Shown piece after piece: positions 2,406-26,054 of a stretch of DNA of 43,488 nt. The position numbers and the translations under genes were made by a program. Each line of letters begins with the position of its first letter. Within the stretch, counting starts at the first letter, position 1. This DNA comes from Endomicrobiaceae bacterium (GTDB lineage: Bacteria; Elusimicrobiota; Endomicrobiia; Endomicrobiales; Endomicrobiaceae), in NCBI GenBank assembly GCA_028711215.1, contig JAQTSO010000010.1, positions 1 through 43,488 of the forward strand. The letters are read 5' to 3'. The notes below the pieces were generated by a model that was given only the letters and a program-made list of their open reading frames with translations, had not been told where the DNA came from and ran no database searches.

Positions 2406-4361
2406 ATGCTTAAGAAAATTTGGATTTCACTTTTATTGATTGCTTTAACAACATCTTTCACATCTGTTTTAACTGCCGGTTCAAAAAAAGAAGATAAAAA
2501 AACACAACGCACACAGATAAACATTCAAACTCCCGGGACAGAAGAATTTGTTGACTATGAAAAATACGGTGAGTTCCAAAATCTCGGAACAGACAAATAT
2601 AAATATACAATTAAAGACCACGTAGGTTTAAAGCAGGCATCCGGCGAAGGCATCTTTCCAAACGTAGCAGATGTTTATAAAAGTCCTGATTTCAAAAAAC
2701 TTAAAAGAGAAAAAAAATTAGATGGCGATAAGTGGGCATTTGTTAATACAATGGATCCTCGTGCAAATTACTATAAATGGGCAACCGCACAAGAGGAACC
2801 GGGTGTAAAACAATATTACACAGCTCTTGCTTTAGAACAGGCAGGAGACTATAAACGTGCAGTAAAAGCATATCATGCAATAGCAGTGTTTTTTCCAAAA
2901 TCAACAGGTGTTACATTTTGGAAAACACCTTGGTATGTGGCACCGGTAGCTATTGAAAAAATTAAATATTTAACAAGAGAACATAAAGATTTAGGAGTTA
3001 AACTTGTTGACGGCGAAATTGATATTATCGGCAAGTATGATGATGATAAATCAAATGACGATTTTATAGTAAATCCGGGAAAAATAGTTCCGGCAAAACC
3101 TGAAGACTGGATTTTAAAGAAAGCAGATTTGGATTCCATAGGAATAAAAAAAGTTATAGGTAAAGGTAAAGTAAAACTTGTAGAATATAATAACAAACAT
3201 TATCAGTTAATGGTTGATGATAAACCATATGTTATGAGAGCGATTTGCTATTCGCCTACGCCGGTAGGCTTAACCCCCGATAACGGAAGCGTTAACGTTT
3301 CAAAAGATTGGTCTTGGGCTGATTATAATAAAAATAAAATAATTGACGGACCTTATGAATCATGGGTAGATGCAAATAAAAATAACAAAAAAGACAGAAA
3401 AGAAAAAGTAGTCGGTGATTTTCAACTAATGAAGGAAATGGGGATAAACACAATAAGAATTTATGATTATCCGAGCGTTAATAAAGAAGTATTAAAAGAC
3501 GGATATGAAAGATTTAATTTTATGTATATGATAGGAAATTTTTTGGGTATGTACGGTGCTCATTCCGGTGCAGGATGGTTTGAAGGTACGGATTATACAA
3601 ATCCACAACACCGCGAAAATATGTTAAACAGCGTAAGGCAAATGGTTGAAGAATATAAGAATGAACCATATGTATTGATGTGGGTTCTCGGCAATGAAAA
3701 TAATTACGGGACAGTTGGTGTTGTCGGTGTAAGTGCAGGCACATCATGTAATGTAAGAAAAGATCCCGCTTCATACTACAAATTTGTAAATGAATGTGCA
3801 AAACTCATTAAGGAATTAGATCCTCAACAAAGACCGGTAGCAATATGTAACGGTGATTTGTTATTTATGGATATATGTGCTAAAAATGCACCTGATTTGG
3901 ATATATACGGAGCCAATGCTTACAGAGGAAAAGAAGGATTCGGGATGCTTTGGAAAGATGTATCTAAATTATACGAAAAACCTGCAATTATAACTGAATA
4001 CGGATGTCCCGCTTACAGTAAATATTTAACATTTTCAGAAAATGAAGACGAACAGGCAGAATATCACAAAGGAAGCTGGACTCATATGGAAGAAAATTTT
4101 GCCGGATTTGGTTCAGGCAACGCTTTGGGCGGAGTAATATTTGAGTGGACTGATGAATGGTGGAAATCAGGGCCACCGCCTGAATTCGATCAGAATAAAC
4201 AAGACTTAATAGGTCAGTGGATGGGGCCGTTCATAGATGGTTGGGCATATGAAGAATGGTTTGGATTATGTTCCATAGGTGACGGGAAACACGGACCTTT
4301 TAAAAGACAATTAAGAAAATCTTACTTTACATATAAAGAGCTATGGGAAAAATACAAATAA
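2406..4361 (+). CDS. Exported glycoside-hydrolase-like protein with TPR-like N-domain and EF-hand-like loops
   Basis: This 651-residue protein has an N-terminal signal peptide (MLKKIWIS to about residue 24) and a perfect AGGAGG six nt before the ATG. Residues of about 110-170 look helical and TPR-like (YYTALALEQAGDYKRAVKAY). From about residue 255 the protein is homologous to the next gene and has a GH-A clan TIM-barrel look close to the GH2 catalytic domain. LMWVLGNEN places the likely acid/base at E431, and IITEYG places the likely nucleophile at E531. Before the barrel, DYNKNKIIDG (306-315) followed by DANKNNKKDRKE resembles paired EF-hand or dockerin-type calcium loops. The likely role is hydrolysis or transglycosylation of a beta-linked glycan in the periplasm or at the surface; the substrate is unknown. 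The N-domain is absent from the paralogue. Confidence 0.78.
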   Translation: MLKKIWISLLLIALTTSFTSVLTAGSKKEDKKTQRTQINIQTPGTEEFVDYEKYGEFQNLGTDKYKYTIKDHVGLKQASGEGIFPNVADVYKSPDFKKLKREKKLDGDKWAFVNTMDPRANYYKWATAQEEPGVKQYYTALALEQAGDYKRAVKAYHAIAVFFPKSTGVTFWKTPWYVAPVAIEKIKYLTREHKDLGVKLVDGEIDIIGKYDDDKSNDDFIVNPGKIVPAKPEDWILKKADLDSIGIKKVIGKGKVKLVEYNNKHYQLMVDDKPYVMRAICYSPTPVGLTPDNGSVNVSKDWSWADYNKNKIIDGPYESWVDANKNNKKDRKEKVVGDFQLMKEMGINTIRIYDYPSVNKEVLKDGYERFNFMYMIGNFLGMYGAHSGAGWFEGTDYTNPQHRENMLNSVRQMVEEYKNEPYVLMWVLGNENNYGTVGVVGVSAGTSCNVRKDPASYYKFVNECAKLIKELDPQQRPVAICNGDLLFMDICAKNAPDLDIYGANAYRGKEGFGMLWKDVSKLYEKPAIITEYGCPAYSKYLTFSENEDEQAEYHKGSWTHMEENFAGFGSGNALGGVIFEWTDEWWKSGPPPEFDQNKQDLIGQWMGPFIDGWAYEEWFGLCSIGDGKHGPFKRQLRKSYFTYKELWEKYK

Positions 4362-5623
4362 TATTTACAAGATTAATAATCCCTTTTTTTATTATCATTT
4401 TTAGTTTTTCTTTTATTTATTCGCAAGAACAAACAGAAAAGAAGCTTGGAAACGGCATTGTTCAGTTGATACAAGATGAAGACGGTGTGTGGAGAATTAC
4501 CGTTAACGGTCAATCATATTTTATTAAGGGAATTGAATATTCTGCTGATATTGTGGGCAATAGACCCGATGTTAATGATTGGATGTGGTCTGATTTAAAC
4601 GATAACGGTAAAATAGACGGTCCGTACGATTCATGGATTGATTTTAACAGAAACAGTTATCAAGACGCTGATGAAAATGTTATCGGCGATTTCTCTTTAC
4701 TAAAAGCTATGGGTTGCAATACAATCAGAATATATCATTCCGAAAATATTAACAAAGAACTTTTAAGAGATTTATATAATAAATACGGCATCAGAGTAAT
4801 AATGGGAAATTATCTTGGTGCATACACAAAAGGAAGCGATGCTAATTGGGAAAAAGGAACAGATTACACCGATGATGATCAACGCAGAAAAATGTTGGAC
4901 AGTGTAAGAAAAATGGTTGAGAAACATAAGGATGAACCGTATGTGTTGATGTGGATGCTTGGCAATGAAAACGATGTTACGGGAGATCACGGTAATTCAA
5001 CGAAAACAAATACAAATGCTCATTTATACCCGGTTGAATTTGCTAAATTTTTGGAAGAAGCCTGCAAAATGATAAAAAAAATTGATACAAATCATCCTGT
5101 CGGAGTTTGTAATGCAACAACAAGATTTGTAAAATTTTATGCGAAATATACTCCGAGTGTAGACGTTCTCGGATTTAATCAGTATTCAGGACCTTACGGT
5201 TTTGGAGTTTTATGGAGAAAAATTAAACAAGAGTTTGACAGACCGGTTGTAATTACGGAATATGGTTGTGATGCATACAATCAAACTAAACAAACTACTG
5301 ATGAAGAGTTTCAAGTAAGATATCATAAGCGTGCATGGAAAGATATAGAACAAAACGGTTACTGGGGAAAAGGTGAGGGTAATTCAATAGGCGGATTTGT
5401 TTATTGTTGGCTTGATAAATGGTGGTTAGTCGGATCAAGTAAAGAACATGATACATTACTGGGTGCGTGGAAAGGACCGAAAAGTGATAATTTTTTTCAT
5501 GATGAATGGCTTGGAGTTTGCGATCAAGGAAAAGGGATGCATAGTCCCTTTAAAAGATATTTGAGAAATATATATTTTTTATATCAGGAAGAACTCTGGA
5601 ATTGGGATCCTGCAGTTTATTAA
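4343..5623 (+). CDS. Exported glycoside-hydrolase-like protein, paralogue of the upstream gene
   Basis: The 426-residue product starts within the last 19 nt of the preceding gene, implying translational coupling. The first 27 residues (MGKIQIIFTRL then a hydrophobic stretch ending FSFIYS) form a signal peptide. The rest parallels the C-terminal 400 residues of the upstream protein. It shares the EF-hand-like loop DLNDNGKIDG (84-93), VIGDFSLLKAMGCNTIRIY, LMWMLGNEND with the presumed acid/base E209, and VVITEYGCDAY with the presumed nucleophile E306. Both proteins end with a conserved HxPFKRxLRxxYF motif. This looks like tandem duplication followed by divergence, perhaps giving two enzymes for one glycan. 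A GH2/GH5-like fold is a confident inference, the reaction is not. Confidence 0.78.
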   Translation: MGKIQIIFTRLIIPFFIIIFSFSFIYSQEQTEKKLGNGIVQLIQDEDGVWRITVNGQSYFIKGIEYSADIVGNRPDVNDWMWSDLNDNGKIDGPYDSWIDFNRNSYQDADENVIGDFSLLKAMGCNTIRIYHSENINKELLRDLYNKYGIRVIMGNYLGAYTKGSDANWEKGTDYTDDDQRRKMLDSVRKMVEKHKDEPYVLMWMLGNENDVTGDHGNSTKTNTNAHLYPVEFAKFLEEACKMIKKIDTNHPVGVCNATTRFVKFYAKYTPSVDVLGFNQYSGPYGFGVLWRKIKQEFDRPVVITEYGCDAYNQTKQTTDEEFQVRYHKRAWKDIEQNGYWGKGEGNSIGGFVYCWLDKWWLVGSSKEHDTLLGAWKGPKSDNFFHDEWLGVCDQGKGMHSPFKRYLRNIYFLYQEELWNWDPAVY

Positions 5624-5695: not shown

Positions 5696-8641
5696 ATGTC
5701 AGAAAACGAGCAATCTAAGCAAGTGGAAATATCTGACGGACTTGATTTTGGTTTGTTTATTAATAGGCAATATGTCACTGTAAAACGCATAGGCGTTGGT
5801 GGTTTCGGTACAGTTTGGCAAGCGTATGATTTTAGTTTAAGAAATTTTATAGCAATAAAAGAACTTTTACCCGTGTATGCGGAACCAAAGTTTGTTGAGA
5901 TGTTCTACAAAGAAGCTCTTATCGCAAAAAATATAATCCACGACAATATAGTCAGAGTTCAGCATTTTTGGAAAGGGTCCAACGGAACATTTTATGTTGT
6001 GCTTGATTACATAAGAGGCGTTGACCTTGAAACTTTAATAAGAAAATGCAACCAAGAAAAAGTTCTTATTCCTTGGCAGTTATCCACCCTAATATGTATA
6101 AATGTTTTAAAGGCAATTGATTATGCAAACAGGATAGCCAGAGATTCAATTACCGGAAATCCCTATGGAATTGTTTATAGAGATATTTCTCCCGGCAATG
6201 TTCTTTTGTCGTTTGACGGAAATGTTAAACTGAGTGATTTCGGTATTGCTAAAACTGCCGATGAAATCAAGGATTCTATCCCGCAGAAAGTAATTGCAGG
6301 AAAATATCCGTATATGTCACCCGAACAAATTAAAGGGCAGTCTGATATTGATCACAGAACAGATATTTTTTCCGTTGCAGTTTTATTTTATGAAATGTTA
6401 ACGGGACACCAACTTTATCAGGGAACAAATGAAGAAATAAAAGCGCAGGTTCTCGGTAAAAAATTTGATACCGAAGGATTAAATGCACCGGGAGTTCCTC
6501 ATGAAATGTTTGAGGTTATATCCAAAGCTTTAGAAAAAGACAGAGATGTACGTTATGAAAAAGCAATAGAAATGTACAGAGATATCAGACGCATTTTAAA
6601 AGGTGTAGATACGGATGATTTATCTATTGAACTTTCGGAATTTGTAGTTAAAATTATGAAAGAGAATGTTATAAAATCCGAAAAATTGGTAGAAAATGTC
6701 AAGTCGTTAACCGTAGCAGAACTTGAACGTAATTCTAAGATACCAAAAATTCAATGTTATGATTTTATAGTCGGTCAACAGGCAAATGCTCAGGGTTCCG
6801 GTATGAATCCGGACCAACCTCAATCTCAATATTTTCAACAACAAGCACCGCAATCAAATGTTCAGCAACAACAACCGTCTCAGATAAAAGCCGAAGAAAG
6901 ACGACAGCCTTCATTAAGAGTTGAAGCAAAGGGGAAAACTGTTTTTGAAGAAGTCGGTGATTGGTTGTTTAAAAAATTCGATGAATTAAAGAAAACAATA
7001 TTAAAAATTGTTATAGCAATATTTTTAGCAGTACTTGTACTTGCCGTTGCCGATGTGTTTTTTCAGATTACTCCGTTCGGTAAAAAAGTTTATGATACGA
7101 TGAATCCGCCGGATGTTGTTATATCTACAGTTCCTTCCGGGGCCGTTGTCAGTATGAAAACCAAAAGTGGAGAAGTTATATTGAATAATATATCTTCTGC
7201 TGCCGAAATTCCTGTAAGAAAGGTTAAACCCGGATCATATATTGTTACAGCATTAAAAGAAGGTTTTAGACCCGTTCAAAGAGTTGTTCAAATAGAAGGA
7301 CAAAAAAAAGCCAGAAAAGGTGCCAGAGAAAAAGTAGAGATAATGTTTGATTTTGTATTGAATGTTGAATCTGTGCCATCCGGCGCGAGCGTTTATGTTG
7401 ACGGCAACAAGTTTGGGACAACTCCGTGCAAAGCACAGCTTTTAGCTGCTCCGCACACAATAAGGCTTGCCATGGAAGGTTTTGAAGATTTGGGGTCCAA
7501 TGCAAAAGAAAGAAAAGAGGGACAGTGTAATGTTGACTTTACAATGTCATCTGTAAGTGAAATTTTTGCGGAAGTTGATAAGAGATTTTGGGAATGTGAA
7601 CTTAAAAATATAGATAGTGAAAATGTTTTCAGTGTTAAGGGTAATTTATTTAAAAAGATGAATGTAACCTCGGAGCCAAAAGGTATGATGATTCACGTTC
7701 AGGGAGAATCTCAACCTAGAGGGAATACACCATTAAATACATCGTTTAAACTGGGGACATATAATATTAGATTTTTAGATCCCTCCGCCAGATATGGGGA
7801 ATGTGTAAAGGAAGTTAAAGTTGATGCCCAGTCAGATCCAAATGTTTTTGTCAAGATGAATAAATTTGTAACATTCAGAGTCAGATCCAAAGATAATCCC
7901 GGCGATACATTTATAACAAAGGTAAGAATTTCAAATAGAAATGTTTCGATTACAAAAGATATTTCTACTTCAAAACCGATACGTATTGCTTTACCGGTTG
8001 AAACTTTTGATGTTGTTTTTTATGGTGATGCGGAATACAAAAGTTATAAAGTTTCGAATGTAAATATTGATAATGTAAGCACTGTGACAGGTGAGTTGGA
8101 ATATGCAAAAGTTGACTTTACTATAGCTGTTAAATCTGCAACAAACTCACAACCACAGGAAGCATATATATGGCAGGGCAAAAAGTTATTAGGTAAAACA
8201 GAAGCTAACGGATTGTTTAAAGGAAGTTTAGTGCCGGGTAAATATGAGTTGAAAGTTATTTCAAAAGGATTTGATGACCAAATATTAAAAATGGATCTAA
8301 ATACCAAGGGCAACAATAATATTGATGTATTTGTATTAGAACCTCAGTCGGATGTTTCTACATCAACAAATACAATAACGACAACAGAATCAACATCAAA
8401 TAAAGTTTTAGTTGATAATTTTAAAAAGCCACAACCAAAAGAAGAATACAAATTTAATCCTAAAAGAAAAGAAGTTAAGAAAAAAAGTGAGGCTTTGAAC
8501 TCAGAAATAGATCAGGAAGTACAGGAACCCGCAAACGTTGAACAGCAGGTTGTAGTTTGTATGTATTGCGGATATGTTAATACAGTTCCTAAGGGTAAGA
8601 GACTTAGATTTTGTGTAAATTGCGCCAAACCATTGAAGTAA
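5696..8641 (+). CDS. Membrane Ser/Thr protein kinase with PEGA repeats and C-terminal zinc ribbon
   Basis: The 981-residue protein has a Hanks-type kinase at about residues 25-300. The glycine loop is GVGGFGTVWQAY and the ATP-binding lysine is K55. The catalytic loop is YRDISPGNV (D163, N168; Tyr replaces His of HRD), followed by SDFGIAK (D181) and PYMSPEQIKG. A Gln/Pro-rich linker follows, then one membrane helix at about 435-458. Outside lie PEGA-type repeats (VPSGAVVSM, VPSGASVYVDGNKFGTTP, SEPKGMMIHV), then a carboxypeptidase-regulatory-like domain (about 805-870). The last 30 residues hold two CxxC pairs (C955/C958 and C973/C976), a zinc-ribbon pattern. It probably phosphorylates Thr in partners read by the FHA protein encoded further along and reversed by the PP2C. 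A single-helix topology would put the zinc ribbon in the periplasm, which is odd. Confidence 0.93.
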   Translation: MSENEQSKQVEISDGLDFGLFINRQYVTVKRIGVGGFGTVWQAYDFSLRNFIAIKELLPVYAEPKFVEMFYKEALIAKNIIHDNIVRVQHFWKGSNGTFYVVLDYIRGVDLETLIRKCNQEKVLIPWQLSTLICINVLKAIDYANRIARDSITGNPYGIVYRDISPGNVLLSFDGNVKLSDFGIAKTADEIKDSIPQKVIAGKYPYMSPEQIKGQSDIDHRTDIFSVAVLFYEMLTGHQLYQGTNEEIKAQVLGKKFDTEGLNAPGVPHEMFEVISKALEKDRDVRYEKAIEMYRDIRRILKGVDTDDLSIELSEFVVKIMKENVIKSEKLVENVKSLTVAELERNSKIPKIQCYDFIVGQQANAQGSGMNPDQPQSQYFQQQAPQSNVQQQQPSQIKAEERRQPSLRVEAKGKTVFEEVGDWLFKKFDELKKTILKIVIAIFLAVLVLAVADVFFQITPFGKKVYDTMNPPDVVISTVPSGAVVSMKTKSGEVILNNISSAAEIPVRKVKPGSYIVTALKEGFRPVQRVVQIEGQKKARKGAREKVEIMFDFVLNVESVPSGASVYVDGNKFGTTPCKAQLLAAPHTIRLAMEGFEDLGSNAKERKEGQCNVDFTMSSVSEIFAEVDKRFWECELKNIDSENVFSVKGNLFKKMNVTSEPKGMMIHVQGESQPRGNTPLNTSFKLGTYNIRFLDPSARYGECVKEVKVDAQSDPNVFVKMNKFVTFRVRSKDNPGDTFITKVRISNRNVSITKDISTSKPIRIALPVETFDVVFYGDAEYKSYKVSNVNIDNVSTVTGELEYAKVDFTIAVKSATNSQPQEAYIWQGKKLLGKTEANGLFKGSLVPGKYELKVISKGFDDQILKMDLNTKGNNNIDVFVLEPQSDVSTSTNTITTTESTSNKVLVDNFKKPQPKEEYKFNPKRKEVKKKSEALNSEIDQEVQEPANVEQQVVVCMYCGYVNTVPKGKRLRFCVNCAKPLK

Positions 8642-8658
8642 TTTTTATGGAGAATACA

Positions 8659-10482
8659 ATGAAAAAATTATTGTTTTTTTTGTCTTTGTTGTTGTTTTGC
8701 GGGGTACTGGTTTATGCAGATGTCCCGAAAAAACTTAATGTGCAGGGGAAACTAACTTCAGATTCAGGTCAGGTTTTGTCTGAAAAGCCATTTTCTGCAG
8801 TATTGCATCTTAGAGTTGCCGGTTCATCCACGGTCAATAATCCGGTTGATACAAAGGCTGGGACAACAGACAGTAACGGGTTGTATAGTATCAATTTTAA
8901 TGTAGCTAACTTTAGTTATGATGCGGGGGCAGATTTCAAAATTGTAATTACCGTAGACAGTCAGGTAATATCAACAGATTGGGCAGACATTGCTACTAAT
9001 CCGTATTCTTTTTACTCTTCCACGGCAACTTATTCAATATTATCAGCAAATGCGATTACTGCATCATCAATGACAGTAACCGGAGCAGGAAATGATTTGT
9101 TCTGGGGTTATAATTCGGCAGGTAATGCCCAATTATGGCGTACAGTTATAGTTTCAACTGCAAATGTTACAGGGTTATCGTCTGCAACTGTAGCCAACGC
9201 AACAAATGCGACTAATGCAACAATAGCAACAACTGCAGTCAGAGCGACATCTATGACGGTAGCTGGTGCTCCAGCAAATAATTTGTTTTGGGGATATGAT
9301 GCAGGTGGCACGTCTCAGGATTGGCGAATAGTTCTGGTATCAACACCTAATGTTACAGGATTATCAGGTGCAACTGTAGCCAATGCAACAAATGCGACAA
9401 ATGCGACTAATGCAACAAACGCAACTAATGCAACAATAGCAACAACTGCAGTCAGAGCAACATCGATGACAGTAACCGGAGCAGGAAATGATTTGTTCTG
9501 GGGTTATAATTCGGCAGGTAATGCCCAATTATGGCGTACAGTAATAGTATCAAGCTCAAATGTTACAGGATTATCAGGTGCAACTGTAGCCAATGCAACT
9601 AATGCGACCAATGCAACTAATGCAACGACAGCTACGACAGCAACGACAGCAGTCAGAGCGACATCAATGACTGTAACAGGATCAGGAAATGATTTGTTTT
9701 GGGGATATGATTCAGGTGGCGTAAGTCAGGGATGGCGTACAGTTTTAACAACTGTAGGTAACGGATTAACACTTACAGGTAGTACTGTAAGCGTTGCAAA
9801 CGGTACGGGATTAGGATTTAGTGGGTCAACTCTTGTTGTTACTACCGCTCCATATGCTTCAGGAGCAGGAACGGTTGTTGACGGAGCCATAACGGCTGCG
9901 AAAATAGGAACAGCTGCTGTGACGGCTATAAAAATGGCAAGTAGCTCAGTTGTTGAAGATAAAATAGCAACCGGAGCTGTTACTGAAAATAAAATAGCAA
10001 GCGGAGCTATTGATTCGGGACATTTTAAATATGAAAGTGATTATGGTCATATATACGATATAAAAGTTGCAACAGCAGCTTATGCAGAAACTTCCGGAGC
10101 TGACCTTGCGGAAATATATGCTTCAAGTGAAGTGTTGACTCCCGGTGATATAGTTTCGATAGATTTATCAAAAGATAATTCAATAGTAAAAACAAAAGTG
10201 GCAGAAGATACTTTAGTTGCCGGTGTAATTTCAACTAAGCCGGGTTTATTGATGAATAAAAGTGAAAAAGGATATGAATTGGCGATGGTAGGAAAAGTAC
10301 CGACGAAAGTTTGTAATGAAGGTGGCAGTATAAAGAGGGGAGATTTATTAGTTTCTGCTTCAATAGAAGGATATGCAAAGAAAGCAAGTGATAATCCTAA
10401 AACAGGAACCGTTATAGGTAAAGCACTTGAGAATTTTGATTCCGTAAACGGAATAATTTTAGTATTGGTGAACCTACAATGA
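8659..10482 (+). CDS. Exported repeat-rich protein with (Asn-Ala-Thr)n tracts and conserved C-terminal domain
   Basis: I place the start at 8659 because GGAGA lies 5 nt upstream and a signal peptide follows at once (MKKLLFFLSLLLFCGVLVYA); an in-frame ATG at 8647 is the alternative. The mature N-terminus (PKKLNVQGKLTSDSGQVLS) looks like a beta-sandwich with a transthyretin-like DSNGLYSINF strand. Residues 137-370 hold four repeats starting SMTV.G..NDLFWGYxxxGxxQxWRTV. The first three end in VANATNAT tracts with 3, 6 and 4 NAT triplets. The C-terminal 130 residues (DLAEIYASSEVLTPGDIVSID to GTVIGKALENF) resemble a domain I recall at the end of other large bacterial secreted proteins. The likely role is a fibrous surface or secreted protein served by the neighbouring PorV-like barrel; function is unknown. 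Confidence 0.82.
   Translation: MKKLLFFLSLLLFCGVLVYADVPKKLNVQGKLTSDSGQVLSEKPFSAVLHLRVAGSSTVNNPVDTKAGTTDSNGLYSINFNVANFSYDAGADFKIVITVDSQVISTDWADIATNPYSFYSSTATYSILSANAITASSMTVTGAGNDLFWGYNSAGNAQLWRTVIVSTANVTGLSSATVANATNATNATIATTAVRATSMTVAGAPANNLFWGYDAGGTSQDWRIVLVSTPNVTGLSGATVANATNATNATNATNATNATIATTAVRATSMTVTGAGNDLFWGYNSAGNAQLWRTVIVSSSNVTGLSGATVANATNATNATNATTATTATTAVRATSMTVTGSGNDLFWGYDSGGVSQGWRTVLTTVGNGLTLTGSTVSVANGTGLGFSGSTLVVTTAPYASGAGTVVDGAITAAKIGTAAVTAIKMASSSVVEDKIATGAVTENKIASGAIDSGHFKYESDYGHIYDIKVATAAYAETSGADLAEIYASSEVLTPGDIVSIDLSKDNSIVKTKVAEDTLVAGVISTKPGLLMNKSEKGYELAMVGKVPTKVCNEGGSIKRGDLLVSASIEGYAKKASDNPKTGTVIGKALENFDSVNGIILVLVNLQ
9067..9771 (+). repeat. Four in-frame repeats of about 183-213 bp with internal 9-bp (AAYGCNACN) units
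   Basis: Repeats start at 9067, 9250, 9463 and 9664. Repeats 1 and 3 share 77 identical bases (9070-9146 and 9466-9542) although repeat 2 between them differs, which suggests recent gene conversion. The NAT tracts (9196-9222, 9382-9435, 9592-9627) differ by whole 9-bp units, as expected for slippage that keeps frame. Confidence 0.85.
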
Positions 10483-11654
10483 TGAAAAAAATAAATCTGA
10501 TTTTGGTAGCATTATTGTTTTTTTCAGTTTCTGGGACCTCAGAAGCTGCAAAGACTTTTGTTGTTGTTGCCGGCGGAGCAGCTTCCGGTAACAGTGCTCT
10601 GGCAAAAACATCTGCTTTTACAGGACAGTCTTCACTTGTTTCCGGTGAAGCAAGAACAAAAGACTTGGTCTTGCAATCAGGATTTCCTTCGGTTATCACT
10701 AAAGCTCCAAATACAAATATAACTTTTGTAAATTTAACAGGTACGGAAACTTTCCCCACGCAAACGGTAACAGTCAGAATTCAAATAAATTGTGCAAGCG
10801 GATTTGACATAAATAAAGTAAGGTATGCAATAGCAGAGGGACAAAATGCGGAGTTTGGTGAACAAATTGATTATACAGTGACTCCCAGCACGTCGGTTAT
10901 TTTCAATCAGGAAATAAATTTTAGTCAAGGGCAATCTGTAAACAGAGTTTACCTTTATGCCCAGGATGCGGATCCTGCAAATGTTTTTGGTAATGAGACT
11001 CAAATTGTTGTCAATACTGCAGGTAGTTTAGGTGATGTTGCATTCATATCTCCTGACCCTGTAACAAAATTAACTACATTAAATCCTACAATACATACAA
11101 CGATGTTTTCACTTGGTGTTTCAAGTGCTACTGTAAAATTATACAGCGGGACGTCAGCCGGCGGAACAGCTATATACGATGTTCAGGTAAGCACTGCGAT
11201 TATAAATTCAGCAGGAGAAATCTATTATCAAAATTCACTGCTTATGCCGGGCGGGATAAATCTTACGGCAAATGCAGATTATACTTTGGTAGTTGATTTT
11301 GATAACACATATCCGGATATTGAATTAACATTTAAAGCTCTGGACGGCGGAGTAGCAGATATTTTAACTTATCCGTCACCTTTTAATCCTAATAACAATG
11401 AAAAAATTAAAATAAGATATTTACTTGCAAAAGACGGACAAGTTACAATCAATTTGTACAATAAAGCCGGTAAAATTGTAAGAAAACTCATATCTTCGGC
11501 GAGTAGAAGTTTCGGTACTAATGAGGAAGAGTGGGATGGCAGAAATTATGCGGGAGAAATTCTCGCAACTGGTCCATATATCTGTGAAATTATAACAAGA
11601 AGTGCAGATGGCGAAGCCAGAAGATATACTGCACTTGCTATAGTGGGTAAATAA
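10479..11654 (+). CDS. Exported protein with C-terminal FlgD-like/sorting-type Ig domain
   Basis: The 391-residue protein overlaps the upstream stop by 4 nt (ATGATGA; the second ATG is an equally possible start). It has a signal peptide (MMKKINLILVALLFFSVSG to about residue 24). The middle (25-290) appears to be beta-rich extracellular domains without recognised catalytic motifs. The last 95 residues follow the FlgD_ig / type IX C-terminal-domain pattern: ILTYPSPFNPNNNEKIKIRY, GQVTINLYNKAGKIVRKL, EEWDGRNYAGE, ATGPYICEI. In Bacteroidetes and relatives this module can be the export signal of the type IX secretion system; elsewhere it is simply a C-terminal Ig domain. Its place directly before a PorV-like gene favours, without proving, an export or anchoring role. 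Confidence 0.8.
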   Translation: MMKKINLILVALLFFSVSGTSEAAKTFVVVAGGAASGNSALAKTSAFTGQSSLVSGEARTKDLVLQSGFPSVITKAPNTNITFVNLTGTETFPTQTVTVRIQINCASGFDINKVRYAIAEGQNAEFGEQIDYTVTPSTSVIFNQEINFSQGQSVNRVYLYAQDADPANVFGNETQIVVNTAGSLGDVAFISPDPVTKLTTLNPTIHTTMFSLGVSSATVKLYSGTSAGGTAIYDVQVSTAIINSAGEIYYQNSLLMPGGINLTANADYTLVVDFDNTYPDIELTFKALDGGVADILTYPSPFNPNNNEKIKIRYLLAKDGQVTINLYNKAGKIVRKLISSASRSFGTNEEEWDGRNYAGEILATGPYICEIITRSADGEARRYTALAIVGK

Positions 11655-11656
11655 TT

Positions 11657-12682
11657 ATGATAAAAATAAAAAAATCATTCATCGTAGTACAGATCACATT
11701 GATTGTGTTTTTGGCTTCTAATGTTTTTGCAGGTGTTGATTTAGCTCCTTTTCTAAAGAAAGGAGTTGGTGCAAAGGCAATTGGTATGGGTGGAGCATTT
11801 ACCTCGGTAGCTGATGATCCCAGTGCTATTTATTGGAATCCGGCAGGACTCACTAAAATGCAAATGTATTCTATTTCTACCATGGGTGCGATGGGTACGT
11901 CAGATAAATATCCGGGGTTGAAAGAAATTATTCCGACCCATCAATTTTTTGCAGCAACGATGCCTCTTGCAAATCTTACAGATATTTTTGGTAAGGCCGT
12001 ATTTGGTATTGGTTATATTTCTTCAACGATGGATGGAATACAGCATACTTCTAGTGATGGTAGTCCATTAGGTGGTACAATGAGTCACACAGATAGTGCG
12101 TATTATTTGTCTATGGGTTATCCTGTTTTTACAGGATATAATAGTTTGAGTGTAGGTGCTTCTCTGAAATATATTTCCTATGAGTTTTCGGGTATCAGTG
12201 AATCAGGCAGTGGCATGGATTTTGATGCCGGTGTGCTGTACTCTATGGGAACATTAAATTTTGGTGCAATGTTAACAAAAGGTGTTGAGATAGACAATGA
12301 TAAAGCTCCAATGACAACAAAATTCGGAGTATCTAATAAATTTAAAATCGGAAATAGTTTTCATATTTTAGGTGCAATGGATCTTATCCAAAGACAGGAA
12401 GAACCATTAATAACAAATATAGGTGCTGAATTTGGAATAAGAGAACCTTTAATGTTTGATAATTTTGGAATTAACACAATAAGTTTTAGATTTGGCGTTG
12501 AAGGTTATGCAATAGAAAACAGATATGATATTTCTTCAGCATTAAATGAGTCGGTTGGTTACAATTGTGGATTAGGTATAGATTTATATGTAGCAAGGAC
12601 ATATTTACAATTGGACATTGCATTGCTGAGTGGGAATATGTTTGAGCAAAGTACAAAATTTTCGGTTAATTTTTATTTCTAG
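11657..12682 (+). CDS. PorV/PorQ-like outer-membrane beta-barrel protein
   Basis: This 341-residue protein starts 2 nt after the upstream stop. It has a signal peptide (MIKIKKSFIVVQITLIVFLASNVFA). The mature N-terminus carries the family hallmark GVGAKAIGMGGAFTSVADDPSAIYWNPAGL, as in PorV, UPF0164 and related FadL-like barrels. The rest alternates polar and aromatic or aliphatic residues in barrel-like strands and ends in a C-terminal strand with terminal aromatics (KFSVNFYF), typical of Bam-inserted porins. In type IX secretion PorV is the shuttle that binds C-terminal domains of cargo. The co-encoded FlgD-tailed protein makes a related role conceivable, but no other core type IX genes are in the window. 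Confidence 0.85.
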   Translation: MIKIKKSFIVVQITLIVFLASNVFAGVDLAPFLKKGVGAKAIGMGGAFTSVADDPSAIYWNPAGLTKMQMYSISTMGAMGTSDKYPGLKEIIPTHQFFAATMPLANLTDIFGKAVFGIGYISSTMDGIQHTSSDGSPLGGTMSHTDSAYYLSMGYPVFTGYNSLSVGASLKYISYEFSGISESGSGMDFDAGVLYSMGTLNFGAMLTKGVEIDNDKAPMTTKFGVSNKFKIGNSFHILGAMDLIQRQEEPLITNIGAEFGIREPLMFDNFGINTISFRFGVEGYAIENRYDISSALNESVGYNCGLGIDLYVARTYLQLDIALLSGNMFEQSTKFSVNFYF

Positions 12683-12692
12683 AGGTTAAAAA

Positions 12693-13688
12693 ATGAATAA
12701 AAAACAAATTAGTATTATGTTATCGTTGTCGATTATGTTGCTCAGTGGCACTCCTTTATTTTCAGCAGATAAAAAAGATGTTGCCGATCCGATACTCAAA
12801 GAAGTAATAAATGAATTGTCACCGAAAATGCCGAGATTTGTAGATAAATACGGTCCAAGTATTTTCGTTTCAGACGAACAAGTTACCAGAGCAGGTTTAA
12901 TACTTGCACTTTATGAATATGATAAAAGAAATTCAGTTGCCAGTCTTTCCGCCAACTTTGTTTCGAAAAGAGATTTTGATTTATTAAGTACCAGATTGTC
13001 GTTTATTGAAAAATCAGGCGGAAAATCTTCCGGATCCGGTTCCAGTGTTGATATGATAAAACTTATGAATGACTTAGATCCGAACATGCCAATGTTACTT
13101 GATAATAATTTGGCAAATTCAAAAGTTTTTAAAGATTTACAAAAGAAAGTGGATATGATGGGATTATCGGCTTCTTCAGGTTCAGGTCAGTCTGTTCCTA
13201 ACGTTGCATTGGTAAATATGAAAACAGACATAAATAATTTAAGTAAAAGAATAGAAACTTTTGAAATGAGTTCAAAAAGTACTAATTATACAGGAAAACC
13301 TTCTAAGGAATTGGATGAATTAAAGCTTTCATTTGCCCAGATTCAAAAAAGTTATGTTAATATTGCAAAAAGAATTGACGAATTGGAAAATAGACCTATG
13401 ATGGTATCTGCAAAAGATGGCATAAAAGTCAGCGATGCTCAGATAGAAGGCTTAAATGCAAAAATTAATTCTATCAAAAAAACTGTATCGAGTATTCCTA
13501 CAAACGATTATGTGAAAGCAGAAATAAGCAAAACATCTCAAGATGTAAAAAGATTAGAAAGAAAAATAGATGAAATTGAAAGTTCAGGCGGTTCTGTCGG
13601 CATAAGTGAATCAAAATCTTCAACCGGTACCTTTGCTAAAATAAGTTTGGGTATAACGATGATTGCAGCATTATTTGTAGCAAGATAA
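12693..13688 (+). CDS. Exported coiled-coil protein with N-terminal SLH-like segment
   Basis: This 331-residue protein has AGAGG upstream and a signal peptide (MNKKQISIMLSLSIMLLSGTPLFS). Residues of about 30-90 include FVSDEQVTRAGLILALYEYD, reminiscent of the TRAE-type core of S-layer-homology domains, preceded by ELSPKMPRFVDKYG. A related motif, DLDPNMPMLLDNN, recurs at about residue 125. Residues 165-300 are rich in Lys, Glu, Ser and Leu with coiled-coil heptads. The C-terminus is hydrophobic (FAKISLGITMIAALFVAR), a possible membrane anchor or barrel-edge strand. I infer a periplasm-spanning tether between the outer membrane or wall and the inner membrane, working with the neighbouring PorV and FHA proteins. 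I do not recognise a named family. Confidence 0.68.
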   Translation: MNKKQISIMLSLSIMLLSGTPLFSADKKDVADPILKEVINELSPKMPRFVDKYGPSIFVSDEQVTRAGLILALYEYDKRNSVASLSANFVSKRDFDLLSTRLSFIEKSGGKSSGSGSSVDMIKLMNDLDPNMPMLLDNNLANSKVFKDLQKKVDMMGLSASSGSGQSVPNVALVNMKTDINNLSKRIETFEMSSKSTNYTGKPSKELDELKLSFAQIQKSYVNIAKRIDELENRPMMVSAKDGIKVSDAQIEGLNAKINSIKKTVSSIPTNDYVKAEISKTSQDVKRLERKIDEIESSGGSVGISESKSSTGTFAKISLGITMIAALFVAR

Positions 13689-13717
13689 TATTCAATAATC
13701 ACAATGGGAGTTAGTAT

Positions 13718-15934
13718 ATGCCAAGAATATTGGTGAAAAAAAGAGAAGAAATAATTTCTGAATATATTGTCAGAAAAACTAAAATAAGAGTTTTGATCGG
13801 TAGTAAGAAAGGCAATGATATTCTAATTGCGGATAAAAATATATCTGAGCAACATTGTGTTATATCGCTGGAGGCATCAGGACAGTATTCGGTTAAGGAT
13901 TTAAATACAATTGCCGGCACTCAATTGAATTCAAGATTAATATCGGAATCGCAGCTAAAATTCGGAGATGAAATTTTTCTTGGCGATTATAAAATTGTTT
14001 TCTTGGACGATATGGCAACAAATAAGTATGATGTTGTGGTACAACAATATTATCTTGTCGGTATTTACGGCAAGTTTTATGGTAAAAAGTTTTTTATAAA
14101 GCAACAAGGTGATACATTTATAGGAAGAGAAAATTTGTCACCCAGAGGCATTGAAAATGATGTTGTTCTTTCCGGCGATATGACGGTATCCAAAGGACAT
14201 GCAAAAGTTACGGCACACGGAGATAAGCATACAATAACCGATATAGGAAGCACCGGCGGAGTTGCCGTAAACGGTGCAAAAGTCGGACAACTTAATACAA
14301 TTCAATTGGCGTTAAATGATGAAATTTCAATAGGCAGAACAATTTTCAGATTTGTTGATTATTTCAGCGAGAATTATTCGTTGCCTTCAAAACAGAAAGT
14401 TGTTATTATGAAAGTTTTTAATTACTTGCATATTTCTGTTACTGTTATTGCATTAATTGTGGCCTGCATGTCTATTTTGAATGGATATAAAGGAATTTCT
14501 ATTTTAAATGACAATCAGGGTAAAATCAGTCTGTCTATCAACCAGGAATGGAATAAGACTATGCCGTTAAGTACACCTGAATCATATGATGTAACTTCAA
14601 CACCGGTAATTGCAAATTTTACAAGTTCCCAAAATAACGTAGCGATGTTAACAAATACCGGATTATTAAATGCATGGGATTTTAAAACCGGTGATCCTAT
14701 ATGGAAACCGTTTGAAATTTATAATTCCGGAGTAGCTTCATTGGTTGCATCTGATATAAATAATGACGGACTGGATGATATTATAGCGGTATCTGAAACA
14801 TCTATGGTGTATATTGTTGACGGACAAACAGGGAATATAATAAGAAAGGAAATATTGGGCGGTGATATTTCAAAATTAACTCCGGTTGTTTGCGATTTGG
14901 ATTCTGACGGTAAAAAAGATATAGTTGTTGCATCTGAAGATGGTACGTTACATTTCTTATATTCTCCGGGTTTTGATACCACATATACTAAACAAACAGA
15001 ATTTATAGACGGACCTATATATGGAAGCCCTATAATAATGTCGAGAAAGAATTTTTCGCCTTTTGTTGTAATTGCCAATTATGACAGCAAGGTTTATTTT
15101 TTAGACGGAAAAACGAGAACAAAAAAAATAGTTAATTTGTTGGAATTATCAGGCAAAGCACATTTGGTTGCAGGCGCGCCTGCTCTTGGGGATATAAACG
15201 GTGACGGCATTGATGAAATTATAGTTCAATCCAGTGTTCCTCAATATATATCAGTTATAGACACTACTAAGTTTTCCGTAATATGGACTTATTTTGTTGA
15301 ACCGACTCCACCGGGTAATATGAAAAATACAACTCCTATTGTATCTGATTTTACCGGCAACGGCATTGGTGACGTTGCTTTTGTTTCTGCAAACGGAACA
15401 ATTCAAATATTAAAAGGAAATACGTCATTCCCTACCGGGGAATTGCTTTGGAATTTTACTATTCCGGGTGCCGGGAAAATTATTTCTTCCCCGTCAGCTT
15501 ATGACTTTGATAAGGATGGAATTTTGGATTTAGTCTTCGGAACGGAAGACGGTCGTATAATAATTGCAAAAAGTAATACAAAAAGGAAAGAAATTGAAAT
15601 ACTTGCAGATTTAAAAGCAAGTAATTCTGCGATAACATCCACTCCGTTAATTGCTGATTTGAACGGGGACAAAAGTATCGAAATTCTTTACACAAATATT
15701 CAAGATGCCATACAGGTTTTAAATACAAATTGTAAAACTTTAAAAAATCTTAAAATATGGCCTATGTTTTTATGTAATTCGGAGCATAATGCCAATTTTT
15801 CATTAAAGACGTATAAAAATAAATATGTCAAGATGTTTGTTTTTGGTATAGTTTTATTTATTTTGGTTGTGTTTTTAAAAATCAGAGGGATTATCAAAAA
15901 AGCTAAGAAAAAAGTTAAGGTTATATATTTATGA
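13718..15934 (+). CDS. Membrane protein with two FHA domains and an FG-GAP/VCBS-type beta-propeller
   Basis: The 738-residue protein has two N-terminal forkhead-associated domains. FHA1 (about 22-100) includes IGSKKGNDILIADKNISEQHC. FHA2 (about 115-215) includes FIGRENLSPRGIENDVVLSG, VSKGHAKV and STGGVAVNG. FHA domains bind phosphothreonine. One membrane helix follows at about 236-255. Next come calcium-type propeller blades: DINNDGLDDIIAV, DLDSDGKKDIVVA, DINGDGIDEIIVQ, DFTGNGIGDVAFV, DFDKDGILDLVFG and DLNGDKSIEILY. A second helix (about 705-723) and a basic tail end the protein. The likely topology is cytoplasmic FHA pair, periplasmic propeller, cytoplasmic tail. It lies between the kinase and its presumed phosphatase and is a strong candidate for the phosphothreonine reader linking the two compartments. 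It overlaps the next gene by 4 nt. Confidence 0.9.
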   Translation: MPRILVKKREEIISEYIVRKTKIRVLIGSKKGNDILIADKNISEQHCVISLEASGQYSVKDLNTIAGTQLNSRLISESQLKFGDEIFLGDYKIVFLDDMATNKYDVVVQQYYLVGIYGKFYGKKFFIKQQGDTFIGRENLSPRGIENDVVLSGDMTVSKGHAKVTAHGDKHTITDIGSTGGVAVNGAKVGQLNTIQLALNDEISIGRTIFRFVDYFSENYSLPSKQKVVIMKVFNYLHISVTVIALIVACMSILNGYKGISILNDNQGKISLSINQEWNKTMPLSTPESYDVTSTPVIANFTSSQNNVAMLTNTGLLNAWDFKTGDPIWKPFEIYNSGVASLVASDINNDGLDDIIAVSETSMVYIVDGQTGNIIRKEILGGDISKLTPVVCDLDSDGKKDIVVASEDGTLHFLYSPGFDTTYTKQTEFIDGPIYGSPIIMSRKNFSPFVVIANYDSKVYFLDGKTRTKKIVNLLELSGKAHLVAGAPALGDINGDGIDEIIVQSSVPQYISVIDTTKFSVIWTYFVEPTPPGNMKNTTPIVSDFTGNGIGDVAFVSANGTIQILKGNTSFPTGELLWNFTIPGAGKIISSPSAYDFDKDGILDLVFGTEDGRIIIAKSNTKRKEIEILADLKASNSAITSTPLIADLNGDKSIEILYTNIQDAIQVLNTNCKTLKNLKIWPMFLCNSEHNANFSLKTYKNKYVKMFVFGIVLFILVVFLKIRGIIKKAKKKVKVIYL

Positions 15935-17355
15935 TTTTATTAAGCGGGTACTGCACCGATAAAGGGTTGTTGAGAACAGAAAATCAGGATTCCTATGGGA
16001 TTTCTGAGGAAACGAGTTTGTTTTTCGTTTGCGACGGGATGGGTGGCGGAGTTGCCGGGGATTTTGCAAGCCGGTATGCCAGAGATATTATATTAACTTC
16101 GTATAAAAGATTAAATGATGAAGAAATTGACGGAATTGTAGACAATTACAAGGAATTTGAAAGTAAAATAGTTCGTGCCGTTTCTGCCATAAGACTTGCT
16201 AACAGAGGTTTATATAATTTGCAGGTAAAATATCCCCTTTTGTCAGGAATGGGAACAACTTTTACCGGGGCTGTATTTGAAAAAGAAAAGAATTTATTAC
16301 ATATTTATAACGTAGGAGACAGCAGGGTATACAGAGTCAGAAACGGAAATATAAAATTATTGACTACTGATCACTCAAAGATAAAGGAATTAATAGACGA
16401 CGGCAAAATGACAGAAGAAGAATCAAAAACTGCAGAAATACAAAGTATGATAACGAGAGCTTTGGGAACAGCTCCGACAGTTAAAATAGATTATAAATCT
16501 GAAATTGTCAAATCGGGAGATGTATATATTTTATGTTCCGACGGGTTAAACGGTGAATTAGAAGATTTTACAATAAGAGATATCGTTCTAACTAATAAAC
16601 CCAATACTGTTTCAATTGCAAACGAACTTGTTTTGGCTGCAAATAATTCAGGAGGAAGAGACAATACAACAGTTGTGGTTTTATATGCACAAGATGAGAT
16701 AAATTTAAATGCGGTAGAAGATGTTTCTCCTCATGAAGATATAGTAATATTTGAATCAGAAACAGGAAAAGAAACGGAAAAAGAAGATGTGTTGATAACC
16801 AGAATTGAAAAAAGTATCGGAATGGAAATTCCAAAGTTAGCTAAGGAAAAAAATGTATTTACCAGTCCGTTGTTTTTAACATTTTTTCTGATATTGCTTG
16901 CAGTAAGTGTTTTCTTTGTGTATTCTCATTTTTATAATTCAGATGTTGAAAAGAAAAGTATAGTTGAGCTTACAGGCAATATTTCCGGTATAAATATTGA
17001 AATAAAAACATTGCCCGATTCTAAAATTAAAGAGATTGAAACAATACGTGATAGGATTTTTAAAATGCAGGTAATACAAGAAGCGCTAAAAGATAAAAAT
17101 TTATTGATTCCGATGTCAAATGTTACAATTATGTTGGAAAAAGACGGTCAAAATAAATTTATGGGATTATCAAGCACAACACCGTTAGAAATTAAATTGC
17201 CGAATGCACAATATAAAATGACGTTAACATATCCTTCTTATAAAATTTTGGATAAAGATTTAAAGTTAAAGGATTTTATATTTCTCAATTTTGAAAATTC
17301 AAATTTGCTATCAAATTTAACGGTTATTATGATTCCAAACGACATAATGACATAG
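15931..17355 (+). CDS. PP2C-family Ser/Thr phosphatase with membrane helix and PEGA-like ectodomain
   Basis: The 474-residue protein starts in an ATGA overlap with the FHA gene. Residues 1-255 carry the PP2C/PppA/Stp motifs: NQDSYGI, FFVCDGMGGGVAGD (metal-binding Asp and Gly), GMGTTFTGAV, YNVGDSRVYRV, CSDGLNG and GGRDNTTVVV. An acidic linker leads to a membrane helix at about 310-333. The remaining 140 residues are extracytoplasmic. Near residues 415-440, STTPLEIKLPNAQYKMTLTYPSY fits a PEGA repeat like those on the kinase. It presumably dephosphorylates the kinase or its substrates in the cytoplasm. Sharing PEGA-type ectodomains would let kinase and phosphatase sense the same periplasmic component; that is inference. 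Confidence 0.92.
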   Translation: MILLSGYCTDKGLLRTENQDSYGISEETSLFFVCDGMGGGVAGDFASRYARDIILTSYKRLNDEEIDGIVDNYKEFESKIVRAVSAIRLANRGLYNLQVKYPLLSGMGTTFTGAVFEKEKNLLHIYNVGDSRVYRVRNGNIKLLTTDHSKIKELIDDGKMTEEESKTAEIQSMITRALGTAPTVKIDYKSEIVKSGDVYILCSDGLNGELEDFTIRDIVLTNKPNTVSIANELVLAANNSGGRDNTTVVVLYAQDEINLNAVEDVSPHEDIVIFESETGKETEKEDVLITRIEKSIGMEIPKLAKEKNVFTSPLFLTFFLILLAVSVFFVYSHFYNSDVEKKSIVELTGNISGINIEIKTLPDSKIKEIETIRDRIFKMQVIQEALKDKNLLIPMSNVTIMLEKDGQNKFMGLSSTTPLEIKLPNAQYKMTLTYPSYKILDKDLKLKDFIFLNFENSNLLSNLTVIMIPNDIMT

Positions 17356-25644: not shown

Positions 25645-26047
25645 TGTCATTGTAAAAGTATACATATTCATTTTGTTTGTATGCGGGATTATACTTGGGT
25701 TATCGTTTATATCCACGGATAAAAACAATCAGAATTTCATTGAACAAAAATTAGATAATGATTTGGTTACTATTCTTGTTGCCAATGATATAGAGCAGGG
25801 AGATGTTATTGCTCAATATATCAAAGAATCAAAAAACGGAAATCAAATATATAATCAATATTATAAAAATATATATTTGCCGAATAATAAAAAAATAGCA
25901 AATATTGAACTTCAATTAAAAATATTGGCAAGAAATTTTAAAATTAATATATCAAAGAATGTTGAACCCGACAAATCATATAAATATATTTTTTACGACA
26001 AAAATAAGACTTACTCCACAGTTGTTTTTACAAGGATTAAAGGGTAA
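25616..26047 (+). CDS. Small membrane-anchored protein of unknown function
   Basis: The 143-residue product has a basic N-terminus, one hydrophobic helix (about 13-31) and an extracytoplasmic domain of about 110 residues without Cys or recognised motifs. Its start lies 29 nt inside ctpA, so translation is probably coupled. In enterobacteria the gene after envC is yibQ (divergent polysaccharide deacetylase). The predicted alpha/beta pattern here (DLVTILVANDIEQGDVI, IANIELQLKILARNF) could be a stand-alone version of an N-terminal domain of such proteins, but this is only a guess from position. Confidence 0.65.
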   Translation: MTKKQKKQSSVIVKVYIFILFVCGIILGLSFISTDKNNQNFIEQKLDNDLVTILVANDIEQGDVIAQYIKESKNGNQIYNQYYKNIYLPNNKKIANIELQLKILARNFKINISKNVEPDKSYKYIFYDKNKTYSTVVFTRIKG

Positions 26048-26054
26048 TAATAAA

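What the first reader, a model, noticed from the sequence alone, without database searches (positions are those of the whole stretch)
9067..9771. Hypervariable (Asn-Ala-Thr)n repeats in an exported protein
Three tracts contain 3, 6 and 4 NAT triplets built from 9-bp units, so copy-number changes keep frame. Repeats 1 and 3 share 77 identical bases despite a divergent repeat between them, a sign of recent recombination. NAT also spells an N-X-T sequon in dense array, though the acidic residue at -2 needed by bacterial PglB is absent. This looks like a length-variable surface stalk.
Basis: partly seen in the sequence, partly recalled or inferred. Interest (0 to 1): 0.55.

Follow-up and report, generated by a model that had tools for sequence, protein, structure and literature searches.

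The report
Phage-like surface fibre with swappable stalk
The repeats belong to the stalk of an exported fibre-like protein in a gut-associated bacterium; its tail end resembles the self-cutting cap of a virus tail spike, while its stalk is rebuilt or swapped from species to species.

Summary
In detail: NAT tracts of 3, 6 and 4 copies, and a 77-nt exact repeat (9070-9146 = 9466-9542), in a 607-aa ORF with a signal peptide. The units are mosaics, as recombination would leave.

The genome is an Endomicrobiaceae MAG, a genus-mate of Ca. Proruminimicrobium. The gene sits in a conserved operon: PEGA kinase, fibre, FlgD_ig protein, PorV-like protein, coiled coil, FHA, PP2C. Its C-terminal 126 residues have the fold of the phi29 gp12 self-cleaving tail-spike chaperone (Z 13.7-14.0), in register with the gp12 cleavage point. 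The stalk diverges wholesale: NAT arrays occur in none of 26 named relatives, yet 9 of 14 genes carry exact in-frame repeats of 39-83 nt.

In four Ruminimicrobiellum-group species the cap DNA is 96-98% identical while neighbouring genes are far more diverged; identity starts at the predicted cut and ends near the stop codon, and stalks are unrelated in five of six pairs. I read this as stalk swapping.

Strain-level length variation was untestable. Glycosylation is unsupported (STT3 in 0 of 11 genomes). Cleavage, trimerisation and surface exposure are inferred.

The parts
8659..8718 (+). Sec-type signal peptide (residues 1-20), predicted cut A20|D21
   Evidence: by eye from the translation; similar 5' ends in intact relatives
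8722..9000 (+). N-terminal beta-sandwich domain (residues 22-114), start of the conserved part (LNVQGKLTSDSG)
   Evidence: AF2 blocks mostly pLDDT 82-96; 76% identical to the genus-mate over the first 112 residues; best PDB matches are MG/Ig-like beta-sandwiches at Z about 8, i.e. a common arrangement
9067..9249 (+). stalk unit 1 (SMTV...VRAT) with NATx3 tract 9196-9222
9250..9462 (+). stalk unit 2 with NATx6 tract 9382-9435
9463..9663 (+). stalk unit 3 with NATx4 tract 9592-9627; mosaic of units 1 and 2
9664..9759 (+). stalk unit 4, without NAT tract
9070..9146 (+). 77-nt exact repeat, copy 1
9466..9542 (+). 77-nt exact repeat, copy 2
9874..10020 (+). approximate extent of short AVT..KIA-type repeats at the distal end of the stalk
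   Evidence: sequence; similar repeats in several relatives
10099..10104 (+). predicted self-cleavage junction A481|D482 (GA|DLAE)
   Evidence: profile alignment to gp12 chains 3gqh and 6qz9, fold alignment 482 to 692, virion gp12* modelled to residue 691 (PMC6542822 passages)
10102..10479 (+). C-terminal cap, phi29 gp12-type intramolecular chaperone fold (residues 482-607)
   Evidence: AF2 pLDDT 89-98 by block, Z 14.0 to 3suc and 13.7 to 3gqh, 80 kept IMG/VR loci of 584 confirmed
5696..8641 (+). Ser/Thr kinase with PEGA domains, upstream operon gene
10479..11654 (+). exported FlgD_ig / T9SS-CTD-like protein, overlaps the fibre gene by 4 nt
11657..12682 (+). PorV/PorQ-like outer-membrane protein (below NCBIfam cut-off)
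12693..13688 (+). coiled-coil protein of the operon
13718..15934 (+). FHA plus FG-GAP protein of the operon
15931..17355 (+). PP2C phosphatase of the operon

Best explanation
The gene encodes an exported, phage-tail-spike-like fibre of Endomicrobiaceae. A signal peptide and a small beta-sandwich lead into a long stalk of low-complexity spacers, here NAT arrays between 33-residue units. A C-terminal cap of phi29 gp12 type follows. Proposed working: three chains are exported, the cap drives their trimerisation and registers the stalk, then cuts itself off between A481 and D482, leaving a stable fibre. Because only the two ends must fit, the stalk is free to grow or shrink by in-frame duplication and to be exchanged. 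In one genus the constant cap DNA looks like the recombination arm through which new stalks are joined. Shown: the parts, their conservation, the stalk divergence, the repeats, the near-identical cap DNA. Inferred: trimer, cleavage, surface location, exchange route, adhesive or recognition role.
For: Cap: full-length model matches pre-mature gp12 3suc (Z 14.0, 116 residues, 2.7 A) and its released fragment 3gqh (Z 13.7, 106 residues, 2.0 A, 24% id; model 482 to gp12 692). The profile of 25 caps finds the same protein by sequence, weakly (E 0.016), with the chain starting at the D of DFAE; virion gp12* is modelled to residue 691 (passages), and a review says gp12 carries a chaperone absent from the virion (PMC9863714, passages). 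D482, A484 and E485 are invariant in 36 of 36 aligned rows; DxAE is in 80 of 80 kept phage loci, residue -1 being A in 79 and G in 1. Operon order is kept across most loci examined (27 loci); the fibre cap and close PorV homologues co-occur: both 26, fibre only 1, PorV only 2, neither 47 of 76 genomes. Stalk: 28% identity with gaps to the genus-mate against 76% (N-term) and 88% (cap). Repeats of 39-83 nt at spacings divisible by 3 in 9 of 14 genes, against 15 nt or less in the kinase controls. Cap DNA of L057/L058/L059/L061: 96-98% nt and 86-97% of four-fold sites identical; against flanking genes 61/64 vs 253/438, p 2e-10 for L057-L058; abrupt edges at both sides. Contig ends within 2 kb: 12 upstream, 1 downstream of the cap in 26 loci, as expected if stalks are repetitive or mixed in the sample.
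Against: The window cap scores 14.7 bits against the PF11962 cut-off of 25. The cap-only model built from bacterial rows alone had pLDDT 67, and its list showed phage cement and head-fibre proteins, not gp12; gp12 appeared only after phage rows were added. Non-cleaving phage proteins share the fold. Nothing here shows a trimer, a cut or surface exposure; the stalk is unmodelled (pLDDT under 50 over most of 114-411). In the CTD tree 25 of 26 family caps form their own clade apart from phages, so direction of transfer is open. Over all 312 pairs the cap's excess at four-fold sites is small (mean 0.056; higher in 230 of 312), and the window pair shows only 30/52 vs 339/790 (p 0.04): near-identity is confined to one genus. 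One relative, L064, has N for the catalytic D.
Confidence: 0.62

Rival explanations
1. Same fibre, but the cap does not cut: it stays on as a permanent trimeric tip, like the phage cement and head-fibre base proteins of the same fold.
For: Fold matches to phi29 gp8.5 and HFTV1, Sf11 and XM1 decoration proteins; L064 has NLAE in place of DLAE yet keeps the rest of the cap.
Against: D and E of DxAE are invariant in 36 of 36 aligned rows and sit at the gp12 cut; gp12 is the best fold match of the better model.
Confidence: 0.25
2. Stalk diversity is ordinary fast drift plus slippage; there is no exchange, and the cap DNA is conserved by selection on the nucleotide sequence.
For: Internal repeats in 9 of 14 genes allow slippage; the cap has a small excess of four-fold identity across all pairs (230 of 312).
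Against: In four species the cap DNA jumps to 86-97% four-fold identity with sharp edges next to unrelated stalks, while at similar flank divergence other pairs do not (L052-L055: 36/56 vs 144/212).
Confidence: 0.2
3. The NAT arrays are a glycosylation array (N-X-T sequons).
For: 19 N-X-S/T sites in the protein, 13 of them in NAT.
Against: No STT3-family match in 11 of 11 genomes searched; NAT arrays absent from 26 of 26 named relatives; similar xA[TS] arrays without N occur in phage fibres (8 arrays in 83 fibre ORFs, 0 in 444 other ORFs).
Confidence: 0.04
4. The locus is a prophage or phage remnant.
For: The cap is common in tailed-phage contigs.
Against: Operon of kinase, FHA, PP2C and PorV-like genes kept across the family, signal peptide on the fibre, one copy per genome in 27 of 76, family caps forming their own clade in 25 of 26.
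Confidence: 0.03

Closest known systems
Bacillus phage phi29 gp12 (preneck appendage) C-terminal intramolecular chaperone; Pfam PF11962 Peptidase_G2
   Same: Predicted fold, C-terminal place, D-x-A-E at the start of the domain in register with the gp12 cut.
   Different: Exported bacterial protein in a chromosomal operon; no beta-helix tail-spike body was found; below Pfam's cut-off; residue before the cut is A, not S; cleavage not shown.
Tail fibres of uncultured tailed phages (PHROG 22593, 6427, 19602)
   Same: 42-51% identical caps in the listed IMG/VR loci; xA[TS] triplet arrays in some; PHROG matches for 22-24 of 25 rows.
   Different: The two kinds fall apart in the cap tree; no NAT arrays in the phage set.
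MyRF / endosialidase-type ICA domain (read in PMC8326128, passages)
   Same: A self-cleaving trimerisation domain that was taken over by cellular proteins.
   Different: That type uses a Ser-Lys dyad (PMC8326128 abstract); no such Pfam model appeared for this protein at E up to 1.
Type IX secretion (PorV) and its sorting domains
   Same: A PorV/PorQ-like gene and a FlgD_ig protein with weak T9SS-CTD similarity lie next to the fibre.
   Different: The fibre itself has no T9SS sorting-domain match; SprA search was uninformative.

Membership tests
phi29 gp12-type autocleaving chaperone | fold of the C-terminal domain | tested here: met
   3suc Z 14.0, 3gqh Z 13.7 rmsd 2.0 A over 106 residues, well above unrelated rows at about 8; not listed for the earlier, poorer model
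phi29 gp12-type autocleaving chaperone | D-x-A-E at the cut, D as first residue of the released part | tested here: met
   80 of 80 phage loci; exception L064 with N
phi29 gp12-type autocleaving chaperone | self-cleavage | not testable with these tools
   needs expression and mass spectrometry
phi29 gp12-type autocleaving chaperone | homotrimer | not testable with these tools
   only monomer models were possible
Pfam PF11962 Peptidase_G2 as curated | score above Pfam's gathering cut-off | tested here: not met
   14.7 bits against 25 for the window cap; best E in the mixed set of 25 caps 1.5e-7, 14 of 25 match at E up to 1. So it is not filed as a PF11962 member, only as working like one
trimeric autotransporter adhesins | YadA-type anchor at the C-terminus | tested here: not met
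   no such Pfam or NCBIfam match at E up to 1; the C-terminus is the phage-type cap
T9SS cargo | C-terminal sorting domain on the fibre | tested here: not met
   no match in Pfam or NCBIfam at E up to 1
N-linked glycoprotein via PglB/STT3 | oligosaccharyltransferase in the genome | tested here: not met
   PF02516 in 0 of 11 genomes; it rang in 4 archaeal controls of 14
phase-variable repeat tract (contingency locus) | copy number differs among strains | not testable with these tools
   no second strain of this species was found

The most novel reading that the evidence does not exclude
A cellular fibre-diversification system: one conserved, kinase/FHA/phosphatase-linked operon per genome carries a fibre whose constant, self-removing cap doubles as a DNA recombination arm, so that whole new stalks are spliced in at the cut codons and then stretched by in-frame duplication. 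The cap is cut off after folding, so its conserved face would be lost from the mature fibre, leaving only the variable stalk exposed.
Probability: 0.25. Interest if true: 0.78.

Novelty: new variant of a known kind. Interest (0 to 1): 0.55.

Why it matters
Phages vary their fibres behind constant ends. Here a bacterium of an uncultured gut lineage appears to use the same design for its own exported fibre. If the cap cuts itself and its DNA serves as the joining arm, one domain solves both folding and exchange, and the locus gives a marker for strain typing and for what these symbionts bind. The gene is found mostly in larger genomes: among genomes at least 90% complete it is in 2 of 14 of the small-genome genus g7 and 16 of 20 of the others, consistent with a role outside host cells; that g7 are flagellate endosymbionts is recalled.

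Tried and rejected
Glycosylation array: rejected. Prophage: rejected. Trimeric autotransporter and T9SS cargo: no matches. Whole-protein patterns in genome contigs gave no relative; the cap alignment did. SprA (PF14349) search told nothing: no control rang. Single-protein PDB search gave only antibody light chains at E 0.18-0.6, taken as chance; the bacterial-only cap profile gave one chance-level hit at E 0.15. The cap-only model was of middling quality (pLDDT 67) and did not list gp12 among the rows shown; the full-length model with phage rows did, though Foldseek's own top 50 for it did not. The N-terminal domain's fold remains unsettled (Z about 8). In one search the L057-L060 cap value (43% nt) is an artefact of a stop codon inside that cap; one search treats the stop as X and gives 87%. 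Literature: searches for Endomicrobi + tail fiber (0 papers), PF11962 (0), Peptidase_G2 + tail fiber (0), and three broader ones (listings only) showed no report of this fibre; one search likewise, listing only. The library is open-licence PMC only. The original gp12 paper was not held, so its catalytic residues are not quoted.

Full report
OBSERVATION. The ORF at 8659-10482 (+) encodes 607 aa with a signal peptide, judged by eye. NAT tracts have 3, 6 and 4 copies in 9-bp units, and 9070-9146 equals 9466-9542 over 77 nt. A same-length stretch of the neighbouring kinase gene has no exact repeat over 10 nt. Four units start at SMTV (9067, 9250, 9463, 9664). Unit 3 follows unit 1 in its core (24:0 informative sites) and mostly unit 2 after it (12:5), Fisher 8e-7 with a cut chosen after seeing the block; run-length shuffles give 0.0069 (units 1-3) and 0.0013 (units 2-3), uncorrected. 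That is a mosaic, as unequal recombination or gene conversion would leave.

WHERE IT IS. The window is a whole contig of a 2.21-Mb genome in 168 contigs, 99.6% complete, 8.8% contamination. tblastn of operon proteins against 27 loci shows the order kinase-PEGA, fibre, FlgD_ig protein, PorV-like, coiled coil, FHA/FG-GAP, PP2C in nearly all loci long enough to show it; exceptions are L034, which lacks matches to FlgD_ig, PorV and coiled coil, and L049, which matches only the fibre (PP2C named). The fibre and FlgD_ig genes overlap by 4 nt. The cap is found once per genome in 27 of 76 family genomes. A close PorV homologue (E under 1e-60) is in 28 of 76; both 26, fibre only 1 (G034), PorV only 2, neither 47.

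THE TWO ENDS. With 36 rows, including 17 phage caps, AlphaFold2 models residues about 25-110 and 481-607 with high confidence and leaves most of 114-411 below pLDDT 50. The cap's best solved relatives are phi29 gp12: pre-mature 3suc (Z 14.0, 2.7 A, 116 residues) and the released C-terminal fragment 3gqh (Z 13.7, 2.0 A, 106 residues, 24% identity), model residue 482 pairing with gp12 692. A profile of 25 caps independently ranks 3gqh first among PDB sequences, at a weak E of 0.016; the chain starts at the D of DFAE, and in the full chain this follows TWS at 689-691. The virion form gp12* is modelled up to 691 (PMC6542822, passages), and a review states that the gp12 chaperone is absent from the virion (PMC9863714, passages). 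So GA|DLAE at 10099-10104 is in register with the gp12 cut. D482, A484 and E485 are invariant in 36 of 36 rows; DxAE stands in 80 of 80 kept phage loci. L064, a Candidatus Endomicrobiellum, has NLAE. Against this: the window cap is below the PF11962 cut-off (14.7 vs 25 bits), and an earlier cap-only model (pLDDT 67) listed phage cement and head-fibre base proteins rather than gp12. The fold family is trimeric where described (gp8.5 base is a trimer, passages), but no trimer was modelled here.

THE STALK. Against G001 the N-terminal 112 residues are 76% identical, the cap 88%, the stalk 28% with many gaps, in low-complexity sequence. NAT arrays occur in none of the 26 named family loci; several of these are truncated by contig ends. 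Other stalks use other spacers, often built on TATYA-like triplets. Phage fibres with this cap hold xA[TS] arrays of four or more triplets: 8 arrays (5 loci) in 83 fibre ORFs against 0 in 444 other ORFs of the same loci. Of 14 intact genes, 9 have exact direct repeats of 39-83 nt in the stalk, at spacings divisible by three; the other five have 7-18 nt; the kinase controls, available for 13 of 14, have 15 nt or less. Growth by in-frame duplication is thus a habit of the family, and NAT is this species' version.

EXCHANGE. L057, L058, L059 and L061 are four species representatives of the Ruminimicrobiellum group. Their cap DNA is 96-98% identical with 86-97% of four-fold sites unchanged, while porV, cc, fha and kinase show 49-68% where available. 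Joint tests: L058-L059 61/63 vs 326/502, L057-L058 61/64 vs 253/438, L057-L059 59/63 vs 246/447, L057-L061 58/64 vs 197/312, p from 2e-10 to 7e-6. Identity begins within about ten bases of the D codon and ends about fourteen bases past the last cap codon. The stalk just upstream is unrelated in five of six pairs; L059 and L061 share it (82% over 103 aa). Over all 312 pairs of 26 sequences the cap's four-fold excess is small (mean 0.056; higher in 230 of 312), so a general constraint on the DNA does not explain the jump. The simplest reading is recent exchange of cap, or of stalk against a shared cap, among these species. It is shown in one genus only; the window pair gives 30/52 vs 339/790, p 0.04. 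Assembly error is a possible confounder, although L057 lies on a 103-kb contig and the records have different sample names.

ASSEMBLY BREAKS. Of 26 loci, 12 contigs end within 2 kb upstream of the cap and 1 within 2 kb downstream (one of the 12, L052, ends at the gene's start rather than in the stalk); L061 has a run of unknown bases in the stalk. This fits repetitive or strain-mixed stalks, and cannot tell which.

ORIGIN AND SPREAD. In a tree of 70 caps the family's form a supported clade in 25 of 26, apart from the phage ones (few columns, some long branches). So the fibre is an old resident of the family, and whether phages or cells had the cap first is open. Genomes with it are larger: medians 1.9 and 1.3 Mb among 34 genomes at least 90% complete, p 0.0002, not corrected for kinship.

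VERDICT. Not a glycosylation array and not merely a slipping repeat: a phage-type fibre in a conserved bacterial operon, with a constant, probably self-cutting cap and a freely changing stalk. The parts are well supported; the working is inferred.

Noticed in passing
L055 (= L034), fibre ORF of 209 aa: The stalk is missing: signal peptide and the start of the N-terminal domain run straight into the cap, and the FlgD_ig, PorV and coiled-coil genes have no match nearby. A large deletion or a wrong join in the assembly.
   Followed up: partly
L064, fibre cap: The catalytic-site D of DLAE is N in a Candidatus Endomicrobiellum with a short stalk (ORF of 304 aa); a natural test of a non-cutting cap.
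   Followed up: no
L036 / L060, fibre cap: An in-frame stop codon interrupts the cap in one Ruminimicrobiellum-group genome; pseudogene, variant or assembly error.
   Followed up: no
window 26197-27093: Tandem repeat of period 444, 2.0 copies, 85% matching, inside the 688-aa ORF at 25959-28025 with radical SAM and TPR matches.
   Followed up: no
window 5696-17355: A kinase, FHA and PP2C phosphatase set brackets the fibre and PorV-like genes, which suggests phospho-control of the exported assembly.
   Followed up: partly
window 2406-5623: Two neighbouring genes match the glycoside hydrolase 2 TIM-barrel family; both are kept upstream of the kinase in the genus-mate (L031).
   Followed up: no
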